Of a stretch of 64,000 nt of DNA, positions 5,540 to 52,220 are shown one piece after another. The DNA is taken from the NCBI GenBank assembly GCA_902728285.1, contig CACVBU010000056.1, positions 62,001 through 126,000 on the forward strand, in the 5' to 3' direction. How positions within the stretch are numbered: the stretch's first letter is position 1; the number at the start of each line of letters is the position of its first letter. Source of the stretch: Clytia hemisphaerica (lineage: Eukaryota; Cnidaria; Hydrozoa; Leptothecata; Clytiidae). Below the pieces are notes generated by a model, which was given only the letters and a program-made list of their open reading frames with translations, searched no databases and was not told where the DNA came from. The position numbers and the translations under genes were made by a program.

Positions 5540-6332
5540 AATTTGATACACTTGTTCCTTGGGTGAATACCTGGGGGTGTTTTTATCTTAATTTTTTCAT
5601 TTTTTTATGTGTCCTTGTCCTAAGAGCCTTTCAAAATAAATAACTTAGGAGAAAGTTCCTCAAACCTGTGCCAAATTTCAGCCAAATCGGACCGTTTTTA
5701 AAGTCTCCAAGCTGCCAGCCTCGTTTTGGTGAAAAACTTGTCCCCAGGCCCCAAAAATCAAAATTTTCAAAAAATGAAAAAAAACACCCCCAGATATTCA
5801 CCCAAGGAACAAGTGTGCCAAATTTCAGCCAAATCCGACCTTTTTTGAAGTGTCCAGGCTGCCAGCCTCGTTTTGGTGAAAAACTCGTCCCCAGGCCCCA
5901 AAAATCAAAATTTTCAAAAAATGAAAAAACACCCCCAGATATTCACCCAAGGAACAAGTGTGCCAAATTTCAGTCAAATCCGACCTTTTTTGAAGTGTCC
6001 AGGCAGCCCCAAAGTTTTAGCCTCGTTTTGGCGAAAAACTCGTCCCCAGGCCCCAAAAATCAAAATTTTCAAAAAATGAAAAAAACACCCCCAAATATTA
6101 ACCCAAGGAACAAGTGTGCCAAATTTCAGCCAAATCCGACCTTTTTTGAAGTGTCCAGGCTGCCCCAAAGTTTTAGCCTCGTTTTGGCGAAAAACTCGTC
6201 CCCAGGCCCCAAAAATCAAAATTTTCAAAAAATGAAAAAAACACCCCCAGATATTCACCCAAGGAACAAGTGTGCCAAATTTCAGCCAAATCCGACCTTT
6301 TTTGAAGTGTCCAGCCTGCCCTAAAGTTTTCG
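5540..6332. repeat. Tandem array of 145-156 bp units plus one inverted piece
   Basis: The phrase gccaaatttcagYcaaatc recurs at about 5670, 5817, 5962, 6118 and 6274, each time followed by cctcgttttggYgaaaaact and ccccaggccccaaaaatcaa. Later units carry an 11-bp insertion (ccaaagtttta). Around 5540-5590 the same text runs in reverse complement, so the array's left end folds back. Long open frames on both strands are by-products of the repeat. Confidence 0.85.
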
Positions 6333-7598: not shown

Positions 7599-24263
<16,665 letters not shown>

Positions 24264-36884: not shown

Positions 36885-37455
36885 TTTTCAAGGAAGACAG
36901 AGTACTATGTGGGAGAGTAAATACATAGTGTATTCCGCCTTCCTCAGAAATATTCGAAAACGTATTTTTTTAAAGAAGGCGGAATACTATGTTAGGGCAG
37001 TAAGTCCATAGTAGTGTATTCCGCCTTCTTTAGAAACATTCGAAAACGTATTTTTTTAAGGAAGGCGGAATACTATGCTAGGGCAGTAAGTCCATAGTAG
37101 TGTATTCCGCCTTCTTTAGAAACATTCGAAGGGTTTTTTTTTTAAAGAAGGCGGAATACTATGCTAGGGCAGTAAGTCCATAGTAGTGTATTCCGCCTTC
37201 TTTAGAAACATTCGAAGGGTTTTTTTTTTAAAGAAGGCGGAATACTATGCTAGGGCAGTAAGTCCATAGTAGTGTATTCCGCCTTCTTTAGAAACATTCG
37301 AAAACGTATTTTTTTAAAGAAGGCAGAATACTATGTTAGGGCAGTAATTCCAAAGTAGTGTATTCTGCCTTCTTTAGAAACATTCGAAGGAGTATTTTTT
37401 TAAAGAAGGCGGAATACTATGTTATGGCAGAAAGTCCATAGTAGTGTATTCGGTA
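36885..37455. repeat. Tandem array of an 86-bp hairpin unit, about 6.5 copies
   Basis: The phrase aaggcggaatactatg starts near 36976, 37062, 37148, 37233, 37319 and 37406, with a diverged copy at about 36890. Each unit contains gaaggcggaatactatg and its partner catagtagtgtattccgcc, so each could form a stem of about 17 bp. Spacers alternate between cgaaaacgta and cgaagggttt forms. No hammerhead core (CTGATGA with GAAA) was seen. Confidence 0.88.
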
Positions 37456-45834: not shown

Positions 45835-45840
45835 TTTATT
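45835..45840 (-). terminator. Possible polyadenylation signal AATAAA
   Basis: The minus strand reads AATAAA about 34 nt after the stop codon of the beta-helix gene, a fitting distance for 3' end formation. AT-rich sequence makes chance occurrence easy. Confidence 0.4.
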
Positions 45841-45873: not shown

Positions 45874-48800
45874 TTAAACCTTAATATTATCTTCTGTATT
45901 GTCTTTATTACAGATTATTTTAAGTTTTTTATGTATCAGCAATGCTAGTAATATCCATAAAGGTGTAAACATTTCCTCCATTACATTTGTGATTTTCACT
46001 CCAAAGTCTATTGGAAATTGTAGAGGTAAACTATGAATGTATACAACTGATCGAAACATATTGATCACCGCATGTAAACATAAACAAAAATATGAAGATA
46101 AATCCAGTTTAGTAAGAACATTGTTTTTATAAGGATTAACATAGTAATGAATTATCAAGTAGATTGTTATGATAGGTGCTAGAATGGTCATGCGGACTAC
46201 TGGATCAATTAGATATGTTGCCAAGAAAGATAAGATCAACCGTTCATATAAGCGCCAAGCTTCCCACCAAAACATGTTGGTTTTATATGGTGTTTCAAAT
46301 GTTTCATAAAGTTTTTCTTGTATTTTTTTTTCTTCTGATTCTGAGAGCCATCTTTGTTTCTTCCTCAAATAAAAGAAAGGTGTCATAATTGGAAATGTCA
46401 AGCATGTTATAAACAGCCACACACTGATGTGTTTTTTCTTGTGAAGGTTATATGCTGCTGTAGATGCAATAGGGAAAGGAAGCACCCAAATTGCCAAGAA
46501 AATGAAATTTGCGATTTGCCAACTGGTATAACATTCAATATCTCCTGCAATATACAAAACAGCTGTCTCTTTAATTGGGACACAATGTATGAAATTGAAA
46601 GATATTTTGGATAAGTTTTTATAACAGAATGCCATTATGGTAAAAAAGCCTATGGAAAAAGTGTCTATTATGGAAGATGTTCTTTTATTGCAAACCCGAT
46701 TAATCAATTTTGTAAATAATAACGATGATAGAACTGTTGTCAGCATAATAATAGTTGAAGCATATGTTTTCAAGAATTCTCTGTAAATAACAGTTGTTGT
46801 AATTGATGGACAAAAAGATTGAAGGTTGTTGGTGATCATTTCAATGTTGAAAAATCCTGATATAAATGATGTTGGTGGCTGGTACAAATCATTAAGCTTT
46901 ATCGTCAGTAATGATTTGGCTTGATAAAATCCAACAAGGATATTGAAGATAGGTGAGAATGGTAAATCTTGTGGTGCTGCTATTTTAGTGTTGTCTGATT
47001 TCTCCACCAGTAGATGTTCATTTGTCTCTTGGTAATTGCTTTTGTTTATTACGCATAATTCACTTCCAAGGTCAGCCTTAAGACTTTTTGATGATGGACT
47101 AGGATTCTGTTCATGCTTCCTAAAACAGCACGGTAGTTTTTGTTTGATTGAAGAAATGATTTTAGACTTGTTATTTTTTAAATATGATACAATTGGCTTT
47201 GTAAAGCACAACAACAATGCCAAAGTAATTGAAAATGCAAAATAAATAAACCAAAACCAAACACGATGATTGTTACTGCATCTAAACGATGGTATGCAAT
47301 TATTAGAAAAATAGTTCACATAATATCCTTTTTTACAACTTCCACACAGAGTACCGGTACGATAAAGATTACATGTATTAAATGAATTACAAGGTTTTCC
47401 ATGGTTTGAACAGCAGTATAAATCTGGACATGAGATAAATTCCATTTCATGATTTTTATTGATAAAACCATAAAAACTGTCTTGACTTTTGATTTGTTTT
47501 CTACAGTCTCCCCCGGGTGGGCAAAATTTGCATGAAAAGTTAGATTTCACTTCAAGGAATCTGTCAATTACTGTAATATTTTCTTCTTGGTCAGTATTAA
47601 TGTTTTCAAGCCTGTATGCTTTTAGTATGCCTTTGATTTTTTTATGCCCACTTAAAGTCATGTATAGACCCCTGTCACAAGGTTGACAAACAAGTTGATA
47701 ATCAAATTCTGTTTTTGATTTAGTGATTGATGAAACAGGATTCTGGTTTATTGGACAAGCAACAGAAAATCCTTCAAGAATATGATCAGTATTTCTTATA
47801 TCAAGGGATAAGGACATCACATTGGATTTTGAATTTGGCCTTCCCTTTAAAACAACTGATATATTTCTCATTGTAAACTTCCCATGTTTTAATCTGAATT
47901 CCATGATGGCATTGCCAGGTTGTTTCACTTTTGAAGTTGAATAGTAAATATCTTTAAGGTTCACACTCAAACCTTTTGCATCACAACCATCATACTTTAT
48001 CATCTTTCCTATGCCACTTACTTTATTGTCTTGAAGGCTTAAGGATTCAACCCAAAATGTTCCTTTATGGAATGTTGCAAAGCTATAAAAATCATTCTCA
48101 GTAATGTTATTATGTTTCAATGTTACCGTAGACTTGAAACTGGTCAAAAAGTCAATTTTGGCAAAGTTTCTTGTTGCTGTATTGTTCTCAAAAACAAATT
48201 CACTCACACTTTGTTCGTGTCTATCAGTTAACTCAATGTAGAACAATGAATCAGAAGCAATGTTATGCTCAATATTTGTTGAAATAAAATTCAATGTACT
48301 GACTTTAGATGCCATGATATTGACAAGTTTATTTCCATTAATGAAACTGTTTTGAATGTTTGTTTTACCATACCAAGTTTCTATCATGGCATGCGCCAGT
48401 TCATTATCAATGAATTTTGATGAAAAAATGTCAAGTTTTAAAATGTTATTTTTGCTTCCAAATCTTTGCTGAATTATGCTGCCACGTTGTATATAGTTTT
48501 GTTTGAAGTAAGACTGTCTTATTTTCAAATGTCGATATTGGATTATGAAAAACTGTTTGATTCTGTTTTGTACAAACTCGCTACTTTCGATCACTATATT
48601 TTGACGCGATTGTATTCCAGTATTCCCAATAATATTTTTTTGCATCACTACTTTAGAAATCGTAACTTCCTTCTGGAAATTGATCAAGTTGTAACAGCTA
48701 TTGTTCATAAACTTTGTTGTGGTCAATAAAAATCTTGCATTGCGATTGTCCTTCTTTTCTGAATCTTTAATCATATTTTGTATAATTGTATTTTGTTCAA

Positions 48801-50979
48801 AATAGCTGTTACTGATGAAAAGATTGTTGCAAGGAACATATATCATTTTAAATTCAAATCTATTCTTAGAGAAATAACTTTTCTTTATTTCCAGACTGCA
48901 GTGAACACAACTGTCCAAGCACTCAAACATTGAAAATGCATGATTCAGTGTGATATTTGAGTTTTCAATAATAACTTTGGAAGCATGTACTTTGAAAATA
49001 TACTCTTTGATGTATGATTCATACTGTCGGTAGTTTCCATAAATATCACACTTATTAACGTTCAATTTGCTCTTGTGAGGAGAAGAGTTGTCTCTGCTTA
49101 TATCAATAATACTGGTTAAAAGTATGTTTTCTCTGAAGTTTGTCAACTCTAAATTCAAAATGCAGCTTTCAGATCTTATAAGAGTTTGTAATGTATTTTT
49201 GTGGAATTCAGAATTGTTGATGTATATTCTTATATATTGAAACTCTAACATGATTCTCTGGAGTTTATTATTGGCAAAAGTTGTATATGAAATATCTATG
49301 GTAGTATCCTTGTGTTTCCCTTGTTGCTGAATAACTGAGCCATGTTTGAAATGATTTTTGGTTATTGAGGTGTGGATCAAAAGTATTGATCTGTGGATTA
49401 TCATCATGTTATTCTCTACAATGTTTTCATTAATGATACTGTTAACCAACGAGAGATTTTCAAAAGATTCCAACCAATTAGATTGAATGTTGTTGAGCTG
49501 AAAATTGATATTTTCTATGATCACCTTGCCATAATGGTAGATGAATTGGTAAAATGTGTTTTCTTTGAAACTATTATGACTCATTTTCAACTGAGGCTTT
49601 TGGGATGTATCACTCACTTTGAAAAAATCATTATGAAGGTCATTAATGAATGATCCATGCGTGATGGTGTTTTTAAAAAAGATGCAATGTTCAATTGATA
49701 CAGGATTCTCACGCAAGACTATCAGGTTATGATCGAATGTATTATGTTTGAAATTGCTCTTTATCATTGTCAAAGAACAGGTGTTCCAACCACTAAAGCA
49801 TTCAAAAAAGACTGGTGCATTATTAAAGTTGAATCCAGAGTCTCTAATGCTAACATTGGATGACATCACACTGAACAAGTGAAGATTTCCCATATCTGGC
49901 TGCACTTTGTTATTTTCGAATGTACATTGATGAAGCTCAAAATTTGGCAGATCTTCAACATGAATGAGGACGCCCTTATACGAATTCACCCCTTGAAATG
50001 TTGTATTTGATATGACGACTTTCTCAATTCCTTGAACCTGGATGGTACCATTTAGAAAAATACTGTCTTTTATTGTGAGATTTCTACCTTTCCCTGTATC
50101 TCCTGATATGATAGATATTGCTTTTGTATGTACTGAAAATTCACAACGGTTCAACTGAATGTCAACGTGGTTACTTGCTTTCATTTCGACTTGTAGGAAA
50201 TTTGTAATCAGATGGATTGTTCTGATCATTGAGTCTTGGATATTAAAATAAACCTTGTTGATGCTTTGAATTTGGAAATGTATGTTTTCAAAATCAACTG
50301 ATTGTGATTCAAAAAAGTTTTGGGATCCTTTTTGACTTTGAAATGAAAAAATGCATCTTTTTGTTGCAATGATTACCGGCTTGATTGTTGATGGAGATTG
50401 TAGTTTGATTCTTAACGAGGCGAGAAACGTTATAGTTGGTTTTGCCATCTCATATTGAACTTTTTCTTGAGAGCTTCCGAACAGATGTAGATCTAAATGC
50501 TGATTGATATTTGTTTGAGAATGGCGATTAAATACAAAATCAAGTGTTTTGCATTGCCTTTTGAAGGTTCCACAGTGTATTTCGTCTTTCCCATGCGGTG
50601 AAATATAAAATTCAACACCATTGATTCCTAAAAAAAGAAAGATACGTTTGCTTTAGTTTAGGATCTGTTTTTGAAGAAAAACCTTCTTAAACTGCGCAAA
50701 TGTCAATTGTTCTTTGTTCTTGGAAGGGGTGAAAAAATTCAGTCTAATCATTTTTTTTTTAATATTCCTAAATGCTCACTAGTATTGTTTGTGTTCGATG
50801 TTACAGAGTGCTCAATGAAACCAGAGCCAAGTAAGATATTAAGTGATATCTTTCATCACAACAGAAAGTAAAAAGTACAAATGTCAAATGTACAAATAAA
50901 CGCTCGCTAAACAAACAAGCTTACCTCTACTCAACAGAACCATTGATACCAAAATAATTATCCACAATGCCATTTTCAT
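45874..50979 (-). CDS. Giant beta-helix ectodomain / multi-pass membrane protein, two exons
   Basis: Exon 1 50979-50925 encodes a signal peptide (MKMALWIIILVSMVLLS); exon 2 50627-45874 carries the rest, 1602 residues in all. The mature protein opens with YISPHGKDEIHCGT, the usual start of extracellular right-handed beta-helix (pectin-lyase-like) proteins. Residues about 40-930 are a long run of irregular coils of the type N-x-hydrophobic-x-N-S-x-F-x-x-N. A Cys-rich region follows (about 995-1135: LVCQPCDRGLYM, CKFCPPGGDC, RTGTLCGSCKKGYY). After a first membrane helix (VWFWFIYFAFSITLALLLCF) and a roughly 80-residue polar loop come six or more hydrophobic segments, including the motif PYKTNMFWWEAWRLYERLIL. 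The layout suggests a cell-surface receptor or channel. Multi-exon-poor structure inside intron-rich surroundings is notable. The function is inferred from topology only. Confidence 0.85.
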
Positions 50980-51440: not shown

Positions 51441-52220
51441 TTTGCTACTTCTTTTATTTATTTATTATCTATTGCTTTGTCAACCTGCCACTTTGCAACT
51501 TTATTCACTTGCTTATCTATTGCTTTATCAACTCGCTACTTTGCAACTTTATTCAATCGTTTATATATTGCTTTATCAACTCGCTACTTTGCAACTTTAT
51601 TCAATCGTTTATATATTGCTTTATCAACTCGCTACTTTGCAACTTTATTCAATCGTTTATCCATTGCTTTATCAACTCGCTACCTCGCAACTTTATTCAC
51701 TCGTTTATCTATTGCTTTATCTACTCGCCACTTCGCTACTTTATTCATTCGTTTATCTATTGTCTTTTTATCAACTTGCTACTTCGCAACTCGCTACTTC
51801 GCAACTTTATTCATTCGTTTATCTATTGCTTTATCAACTCGCTACTTTGCAACTTTATTCACTCGTTTATATATTGCTTTATCAACTCGCTACTTTGCAA
51901 CTTTATTCAATCGTTTATCCATTGCTTTATCAACTCGCTACCTCGCAACTTTATTCACTCGTTTATCTATTGCTTTATCTACTCGCCACTTCGCTACTTT
52001 ATTCATTCGTTTATCTATTGTCTTTTTATCAACTTGCTACTTCGCAACTCGCTACTTCGCAACTTTATTCATTCGTTTATCTATTGCTTTATCAACTCGC
52101 TTATTTCAAAACTTTCTTCCTTCGCTTACTTTTATTGCTTTATAAACTCACAACTTTACTCACTCGTTTATCTATTGCTTTACTCGCTACTTCAAAACTT
52201 CACTATTCTTTGCTTTGTGT
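51441..52220. repeat. 48-bp minisatellite, about 15 units with higher-order duplication
   Basis: The unit ttcaatcgtttatatattgc followed by tttatcaactcgctactttg and caacttta is 48 bp. Since 48 is divisible by three, three plus-strand frames stay open for over 220 codons. A block of about 240 bp (from tccattgctttatcaactcg through tatctattgtctttttatca) occurs twice, showing duplication above the unit level. Confidence 0.88.

What the first reader, a model, noticed from the sequence alone, without database searches (positions are those of the whole stretch)
45874..50979. 1602-residue beta-helix / Cys-rich / multi-TM protein with possible receptor or channel role
A long extracellular beta-helix joined through a Cys-rich neck to a multi-pass membrane domain with a large first loop and a conserved-looking PYKxxxFWWExW motif. 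This fits neither standard adhesion GPCRs nor known animal channels that I can name. Nearly all of it is one exon, set among intron-rich genes. It could be a member of an undescribed family of surface sensors, perhaps for glycans or matrix.
Basis: partly seen in the sequence, partly recalled or inferred. Interest (0 to 1): 0.75.

Follow-up and report, generated by a model that had tools for sequence, protein, structure and literature searches.

The report
Beta-helix sensor on TRP-like membrane domain
This is one member of a large, apparently undescribed family of animal cell-surface proteins that carry a long, fast-changing beta-helix outside the cell on a nine-helix membrane domain that may resemble fungal-type TRP calcium channels, so it could belong to a set of diversified environmental or immune sensors.

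Summary
The gene is real and lies as described: minus strand, 50979..45874, two exons, 1602 residues. Anatomy: signal peptide; right-handed beta-helix of about 940 residues (Pfam Beta_helix over cut-off when scanned alone; fold neighbours); Cys-rich neck; nine-helix membrane domain, N outside, C inside (my reading). The unnamed source genome (417 Mb) holds at least 65-70 related loci, fragments and probable alleles included, on 58 contigs. The membrane domain has no convincing Pfam or PDB match. Its model matches three Megaviridae proteins (prob 0.99-1.00), one named 'Transient receptor potential ion channel', though they superpose loosely. Fungal Pkd2 also has nine helices. Ectodomains diverge faster than the membrane module: one gene pair shares a 95%-identical neck-membrane module under ectodomains without a DNA match. 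Best reading: a surface sensor whose beta-helix binds a ligand or matrix and gates a TRP-like, Ca2+-permeable domain. Architecture well supported; ligand and channel activity inferred. Novelty: the combination and the diversified family.

The parts
50925..50979 (-). Exon 1: start codon and signal peptide (residues 1-18 and the first base of codon 19)
   Evidence: ATG at 50979, hydrophobic stretch, GT donor; no signal-peptide program was run
50628..50924 (-). Intron 1, GT..AG, phase 1 (inferred from sequence, no transcript)
45874..50627 (-). Exon 2: nearly the whole protein, to the stop codon
   Evidence: the DNA search of its genome found this one copy only
50533..50613 (-). Family start cap of the beta-helix, residues 24-50 (EFYISPHGKDEIHCGTFKRQCKTLDFV); S28, C37, G38 and C44 invariant in 17 of 17 aligned ectodomains
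47803..50613 (-). Right-handed parallel beta-helix ectodomain, about residues 24-960
   Evidence: internal duplication, residues 302-528 like 595-816 (E 6e-13)
47275..47802 (-). Cys-rich neck, about residues 961-1136 (R-x-G-x-L-C-G-x-C core, DUF7630-like)
45877..47274 (-). Nine-helix membrane domain, TRP-like by fold, residues 1137-1602
46921..46929 (-). FYQ motif in TM2, residues 1252-1254 (F and Q in 31 of 31)
46531..46584 (-). Predicted extracellular TM4-TM5 loop from C1367 to C1384, beta hairpin and probable disulphide (each kept in 30 of 31; the one exception, L031, has lost both)
46255..46290 (-). PYKTNMFWWEAW motif, residues 1465-1476, predicted cytosolic face before TM6 (second W in 31 of 31)
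45835..45840 (-). AATAAA poly(A) signal

Best explanation
A plasma-membrane sensor of a lineage-expanded family. The beta-helix (outside) binds a ligand, perhaps a cell-surface or microbial glycan or matrix. The Cys-rich neck passes binding or pulling force to a nine-helix TRP-like domain of the kind found in fungal Pkd2/Flc proteins, which lets Ca2+ in or otherwise signals. Shown here: gene, family, beta-helix, neck, predicted helix number and orientation, a fold resemblance to a protein named TRP ion channel, and faster change of the ectodomain than of the membrane module. Inferred: ligand class, Ca2+ conduction, coupling.
For: Membrane model matches three Megaviridae proteins at prob 1.00, 1.00, 0.99 (E 5.9e-4, 8.9e-4, 0.062); the second is named 'Transient receptor potential ion channel', the other two 'Uncharacterized protein'. 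Nine crossings, N out and C in, with K+R richer in the predicted inside loops in 31 of 31 rows (the loops were assigned by me from the helix list with the window protein's charges in view). Fungal Pkd2 has an extracellular domain plus a 'nine-helix transmembrane domain' and admits Ca2+ on membrane stretch (PMC11277609, passages). F1252, Q1254, Y1354, W1399, P1431, W1473 and L1534 are invariant in 31 rows that are 19-35% identical to the window protein. Ectodomain fold neighbours include glycan lyases, glycosidases, tailspikes and an adhesin. No invariant acidic residue in 17 aligned ectodomains, which speaks for binding rather than catalysis. Purifying selection on the C-terminal part: dN/dS 0.15-0.47 in 11 of 11 close pairs with measurable dS (pairs overlap and some are probable alleles).
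Against: The viral matches superpose loosely: TM-scores 0.21-0.27 by query and 0.30-0.51 by target, and the TRP-named one is the worst (rmsd 22.6, TM-scores 0.21 and 0.30); a holin at rank 12 also has prob 0.96, over 107 columns, at E 0.74. The viral proteins' names are annotations, not tested functions. PF06011, the fungal TRP family, is not among the 13 families matched by the 31 members at E<=0.1 nor by their consensus; the genome search gave one chance-level match elsewhere (E 0.33). No PDB fold reaches E<=0.001. No pore residues were identified. No expression data. The ectodomain model is poor after about residue 320 of 949 (mean pLDDT 53.9).
Confidence: 0.4

Rival explanations
1. A GPCR-like receptor: beta-helix ectodomain and Cys neck on a modified helical bundle that signals through G proteins, like adhesion GPCRs or glutamate-type receptors with a Cys-rich neck.
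For: Domain order (large ectodomain, Cys-rich neck, helical bundle, probable extracellular disulphide) resembles such receptors; GPCRs recur among the weak PDB matches, rank 1 being GIPR (E 0.21, prob 0.28).
Against: Nine predicted crossings rather than seven; no 7tm family among the Pfam matches of 31 members at E<=0.1; the GPCR rows shown have TM-scores of at most 0.23 by either length (50 of 187 rows shown); in the viral library the best GPCR has prob 0.33 against 0.99-1.00 for the Megaviridae proteins.
Confidence: 0.2
2. An adhesion or matrix-anchoring protein, or a transporter, whose membrane domain mainly holds the beta-helix at the surface or moves a lipid or cofactor (as proposed for yeast Flc proteins) without sensing.
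For: Fungal TRP-like proteins include ones named flavin carriers (PMC9600462, passages); a long stiff beta-helix suits adhesion (family knowledge).
Against: F1252 and Q1254 in 31 of 31 rows and N1541 and E1569 in 30 of 31 are more than an anchor needs; a large family with diverging ectodomains is less expected of a transporter (inference).
Confidence: 0.27
3. A membrane-tethered carbohydrate-active enzyme (polysaccharide lyase or glycosidase on a beta-helix).
For: Top PDB fold neighbours of the ectodomain are PL6 alginate lyases, a lacto-N-biosidase and rhamnogalacturonan lyases.
Against: Only S, C, G and C of the start cap are invariant among 17 ectodomains (repeats align poorly, so this is weak). 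Identity is 7-13% in the rows shown and only one match is below E 0.001; the fold is generic.
Confidence: 0.07

Closest known systems
Fungal TRP-like / Pkd2 / Flc family (Pfam PF06011 TRP)
   Same: Extracellular domain followed by a nine-helix membrane domain (PMC11277609, passages); fold match to a viral protein named transient receptor potential ion channel. That this name comes from PF06011 is my guess.
   Different: The extracellular part here is a beta-helix plus Cys neck, not an ML-like domain (PMC9600462, passages); no sequence-level PF06011 match.
Animal TRP channels (TRPP/PKD2, TRPML)
   Same: Multi-pass sensor channels (family knowledge, not tested).
   Different: Six helices per subunit (PMC8618638, passage); no Ion_trans or PKD_channel family among the Pfam matches; no TRP channel in the 50 of 187 PDB rows shown.
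DUF7630 (PF24633) proteins
   Same: Cys-neck core: 10 of 31 family members match at E<=0.1, best 6.8e-6; of 4 matches in the genome, all over the cut-off, 3 lie in this family.
   Different: A 45-position neck domain only; the window protein itself is far below the cut-off (11.8 of 27 bits). The fourth match (C816, L050) is a second family with a related neck and membrane domain (hhalign prob 98.5, E 3.6e-15).
Beta-helix glycan proteins (PL6 lyases, tailspikes, PfbA adhesin)
   Same: Right-handed parallel beta-helix fold.
   Different: Soluble or virion proteins, mostly of bacteria, phages and fungi in the rows shown; 7-13% identity; no shared active site shown.

Membership tests
PF06011 fungal TRP-like family | Sequence match to the curated profile | tested here: not met
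   0 of 31 members at E<=0.1; consensus none at E<=10 (HMMER filters drop most weak matches); own-genome search one match at E 0.33, elsewhere, control rang nowhere
PF06011 fungal TRP-like family | Nine-helix membrane domain after an extracellular domain | tested here: met
   AlphaFold2 helix list read by me as nine crossings and one re-entrant-like broken helix; K+R inside in 31 of 31 rows
PF06011 fungal TRP-like family | Same fold as proteins called TRP ion channel | tested here: inconclusive
   Foldseek prob 1.00, E 8.9e-4 to one Megaviridae protein of that name, but TM-scores 0.21 and 0.30, rmsd 22.6; whether the PDB holds a PF06011 structure was not checked
PF06011 fungal TRP-like family | Ca2+ permeability | not testable with these tools
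   needs electrophysiology or Ca2+ imaging
GPCR (adhesion, glutamate or rhodopsin type) | Seven-helix bundle or 7tm profile | tested here: not met
   no 7tm family in 31 members at E<=0.1; nine predicted crossings; PDB GPCR matches not significant
Right-handed beta-helix (PF13229) | Profile match over curated cut-off | tested here: met
   37.3 bits against 25.9 for the window ectodomain scanned alone; 25.1 bits when scanned with the whole frame; only 2 of 17 ectodomains match at E<=0.01
Right-handed beta-helix (PF13229) | Beta-helix fold | tested here: met
   PDB rows shown (50 of 417) are parallel beta-helix proteins by family knowledge, one at E<=0.001; model confident only over about residues 1-320 of 949
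DUF7630 (PF24633) | Profile match over curated cut-off | tested here: not met
   window protein 11.8 bits, cut-off 27; 3 other family loci are over it

The most novel reading that the evidence does not exclude
The family is a germline-diversified recognition repertoire of channel-receptors: a conserved TRP-like signalling module (neck and membrane domain) topped by rapidly changing beta-helix solenoids, diversified by rung-block duplication, divergent mid-helix segments and module exchange between loci, used for self/non-self or microbe recognition in an animal; comparable in logic to LRR-based receptor repertoires but built on a beta-helix and a channel.
Probability: 0.25. Interest if true: 0.85.

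Novelty: new variant of a known kind. Interest (0 to 1): 0.55.

Why it matters
If right, an animal carries dozens of surface proteins that join a beta-helix, a fold common in glycan-handling proteins, to a fungal-type TRP-like domain, a combination for which the searches named here found no description. A conserved signalling module under fast-changing solenoids is what a recognition repertoire looks like, and I recall few such repertoires outside Ig, LRR and NLR families. It would also give the fungal-type TRP-like fold a set of testable animal proteins.

Tried and rejected
Bacterial, viral or contaminant origin: rejected. No relative was confirmed in viral contigs (4 scans) or genome contigs (2 scans), though these scans reach only what short peptide patterns catch. 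The gene has an intron, and the window also carries reading frames that match rhodopsin-type 7TM, PAN, RME-8 and fucosyltransferase families (5 of 6 frames matched something). 'Animal' is inferred from this.

GPCR: considered and ranked below TRP-like. PHROGs: 0 matches in 8 members. NCBIfam: 0. PDB by sequence: 0 hits with the single protein or the 31-row profile at E<=1; four chance-like hits, E 0.06-0.9, with the 8-row profile. Pfam: besides DUF7630, 12 families matched 1 or 2 of 31 members each at E 0.0015-0.1 (among them the membrane families DUF7442, FAM176 and SARAF), and the consensus matched BacA, DUF6063 and others at E 0.025 or worse; I took these as chance because none recurs across the family. 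The weak DUF3830 match (E 0.045) and two single-member matches were treated likewise.

Organism: not determined. A search for the GFP family found none, but the control rang nowhere, so it says nothing.

Ectodomain model: poor after about residue 320 of 949, because repeat proteins align badly (17 rows); only its start and its general all-beta nature are used.

Papers: ten searches of the held open library. Seven looked for the family or its architecture: 1 paper; 0; 0; 0; 0; 20 of 477 listed; 20 of 1,740 listed; nothing in the listed titles and abstract starts described it. Three looked for TRP-like proteins: 15 of 190 listed; 10 of 12; 12 of 834. Passages were seen of PMC12716839, PMC8618638, PMC9600462 and PMC11277609; of other papers only listings and abstract starts.

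Full report
WHAT WAS CHECKED. The reading frame 45874-50652 on the minus strand has 1592 codons without a stop. The first exon carries only the signal peptide; the rest is one exon. An AATAAA follows the stop. A DNA search of the genome finds this copy only. Other reading frames of the window match rhodopsin-type 7TM, PAN, RME-8 N-terminal and GT10 fucosyltransferase families, from which I infer an animal. No tool names the organism and I do not name it.

ECTODOMAIN. Residues about 24-960 form a right-handed beta-helix. Pfam Beta_helix scores 37.3 bits (cut-off 25.9) when the ectodomain is scanned alone and 25.1 bits, just below, when scanned with the whole frame. A rung pattern, chosen after seeing the sequence, occurs 29 times against 7.9 +/- 2.5 in shuffles. 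The AlphaFold2 model is nearly all-beta and confident only over about the first 320 of 949 residues. Its PDB neighbours in the 50 of 417 rows shown include PL6 alginate lyases, lacto-N-biosidases, rhamnogalacturonan lyases, tailspikes and the PfbA adhesin; the top one is at E 1.1e-4 and is the only one at or below 0.001. The helix holds an internal duplication (residues 302-528 resemble 595-816, 26% identity, E 6e-13, where L001 is the same protein from residue 594 on). In 17 aligned ectodomains only S, C, G and C of a start cap are invariant. An enzyme would be expected to keep catalytic residues, so binding is more likely; the alignment of repeats is poor, so this is weak evidence.

NECK. 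A Cys-rich stretch with the core R-x-G-x-[LFV]-[CW]-G-x-C is present in 26 of 27 reading frames examined (L037 lacks it). Pfam DUF7630 matches 10 of 31 members at E<=0.1 (8 of the 31 rows start after the neck), the window protein only weakly (11.8 bits, cut-off 27).

MEMBRANE DOMAIN. The model of residues 956-1602 with 31 paralogues has mean pLDDT 77.7 and pTM 0.76, with 230 of 647 residues at 90 or above, mostly in helices. I read nine crossings from its helix list: 1137-1170, 1242-1259, 1298-1331, 1336-1363, 1387-1415, 1473-1490, 1494-1515, 1521-1549 and 1556-1601, plus a re-entrant-like broken helix at 1421-1439. With N outside, lysine and arginine are commoner in the inside loops than in the outside ones in 31 of 31 rows (mean 0.20 against 0.07; with the long first loop left out 0.22 against 0.07, again 31 of 31). 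I assigned the loops with the window protein's charges in view; seven rows are near-identical paralogues and some others probable alleles, so these are not 31 independent cases. F1252, Q1254, Y1354, W1399, P1431, W1473 and L1534 are invariant. C1367 and C1384 are each kept in 30 of 31; the single exception (L031) has lost both, as expected of a disulphide.

WHAT THE MEMBRANE DOMAIN IS. By sequence there is no convincing match: in 31 members Pfam gives, besides DUF7630, 12 families that match 1 or 2 members each at E 0.0015-0.1; the consensus gives nothing better than E 0.025 outside DUF7630; PDB sequences give none or chance-like hits; PHROGs none in 8 members. By fold, no PDB chain reaches E<=0.001; the best are a class B GPCR at E 0.21 with prob 0.28, MprF and transporters (50 of 187 rows shown). 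In the library of viral models three Megaviridae proteins stand out (prob 1.00, 1.00, 0.99; E 5.9e-4, 8.9e-4, 0.062); one is named 'Transient receptor potential ion channel', two are 'Uncharacterized protein'. The next by E-value is at prob 0.33; a holin at rank 12 has prob 0.96 over 107 columns at E 0.74. Superposition is loose (TM-scores 0.21-0.27 by query, 0.30-0.51 by target; rmsd 8.9, 22.6, 10.3, the TRP-named protein being the worst). That name is also the title of Pfam PF06011 as I recall it; PMC8618638 uses that profile for fungal TRP-like proteins (passages). [quoted passage not shown] Helix number and domain order agree. PF06011 itself does not match the family by sequence. So 'works like' is plausible and 'is a member' is not shown.

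FAMILY. Two protein searches of the genome (both score only the best candidates, so counts are lower bounds) give rows that cluster into 70 loci (gap under 4 kb) or 65 (gap under 12 kb) on 58 contigs. Into that count I put 114 rows: all 100 and 14 of the 87; the other 73 I judged by eye to fall on loci already listed. Fragments are included. Some are probably alleles: L022/L025, L023/L024, L027/L028 and L036/L041 are 96-98% identical over 4.4-5.2 kb, so the number of genes is lower. In a tree of 31 membrane domains the window gene is the sister of a 16-row clade (100/99); the program warns that long branches meet there. A second family in the genome (L050) has a related neck and membrane domain (hhalign prob 98.5, E 3.6e-15).

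SELECTION AND DIVERSIFICATION. In the C-terminal part, dN is below dS in 11 of 11 close pairs with measurable dS (ratios 0.15-0.47); two further pairs with the window gene are saturated, so selection on the window gene itself was not measured. In the ectodomain 7 of 7 pairs also have dN below dS, with ratios of 0.26-0.62 (L038/L039 is near saturation). The pairs overlap and include probable alleles. Of 325 pairs of 26 frames, 27 have C-terminal identity over 0.5; in 26 of these 27 the ectodomain is less alike than the C-terminal part, in some by little; the exception is L023/L024 (0.96 and 0.98), a probable allele pair (for the two-exon clade the C-terminal part is only the 183 residues of neck and first helix). 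The sharpest case is L038/L039: 95% identical DNA over about 2.0 kb that covers neck, membrane domain and about 160 bases of 3' flank and starts near the beginning of the neck, while the ectodomains are 29% identical in protein and have no DNA match. Each ectodomain is single copy and the shared module is found at just these two places. Apart from 83 bases at 82% just downstream, the flanks do not align within the fetched loci, so they do not look like plain alleles. L023/L025 keep the start (83% DNA) and the C-terminal half (90%) but have almost no DNA-level match over the middle of the helix. In a young two-exon clade, six helix exons range from 1034 to 2014 residues; neck 87-98% identical, helix 78-83% identical where aligned (15 pairs); L018 carries a large repeated block relative to L016. 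Such patterns fit gene conversion or exchange of the signalling module and growth or loss of rungs. Positive selection was not shown: no ratio exceeds 1.

MECHANISM. Shown: architecture, predicted topology, family, fold resemblance. Inferred: the beta-helix binds a ligand or matrix, the neck couples it, and the TRP-like domain responds with Ca2+ entry. Confidence 0.40. A non-conducting receptor, an adhesion protein or a transporter remain open.

LITERATURE. Ten searches of the held open library (several show only part of their lists); no listed title or abstract start describes this family. PMC12716839 on GPCR families of close relatives of animals has no 'beta-helix' or 'pectin lyase' in its main text. 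Subscription papers and preprints were not searched, and databases of eukaryotic proteins, where relatives may sit as uncharacterised entries, were not available.

Noticed in passing
window 51465-52157, + strand: Tandem array (48/96/258-base units) about 490 bases upstream of the gene start, open in three frames of the + strand; satellite-like, probably not a gene.
   Followed up: partly
window 5717-6330 and 36926-37451: Further tandem arrays (156/312-base and 86-base units).
   Followed up: no
G000:C816:571392-572780 (L050) and 577865-579196: A second family with a DUF7630 match over cut-off and a related neck and membrane domain, no beta-helix in the frame read; the first 24 or so residues of that frame recur at dozens of places and look like a dispersed repeat.
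   Followed up: partly
L038 and L039: Two genes with a nearly identical neck-membrane module (95% DNA) under ectodomains without a DNA match; the break lies near the start of the neck.
   Followed up: yes
L022, L041: Family loci whose frames are shorter or split relative to a near-identical partner (L025, L036); broken alleles or assembly errors.
   Followed up: no
window 12159-13088, + strand: Frame of 309 residues that matches the rhodopsin-type 7TM receptor family (PF00001, E 2.7e-19).
   Followed up: no
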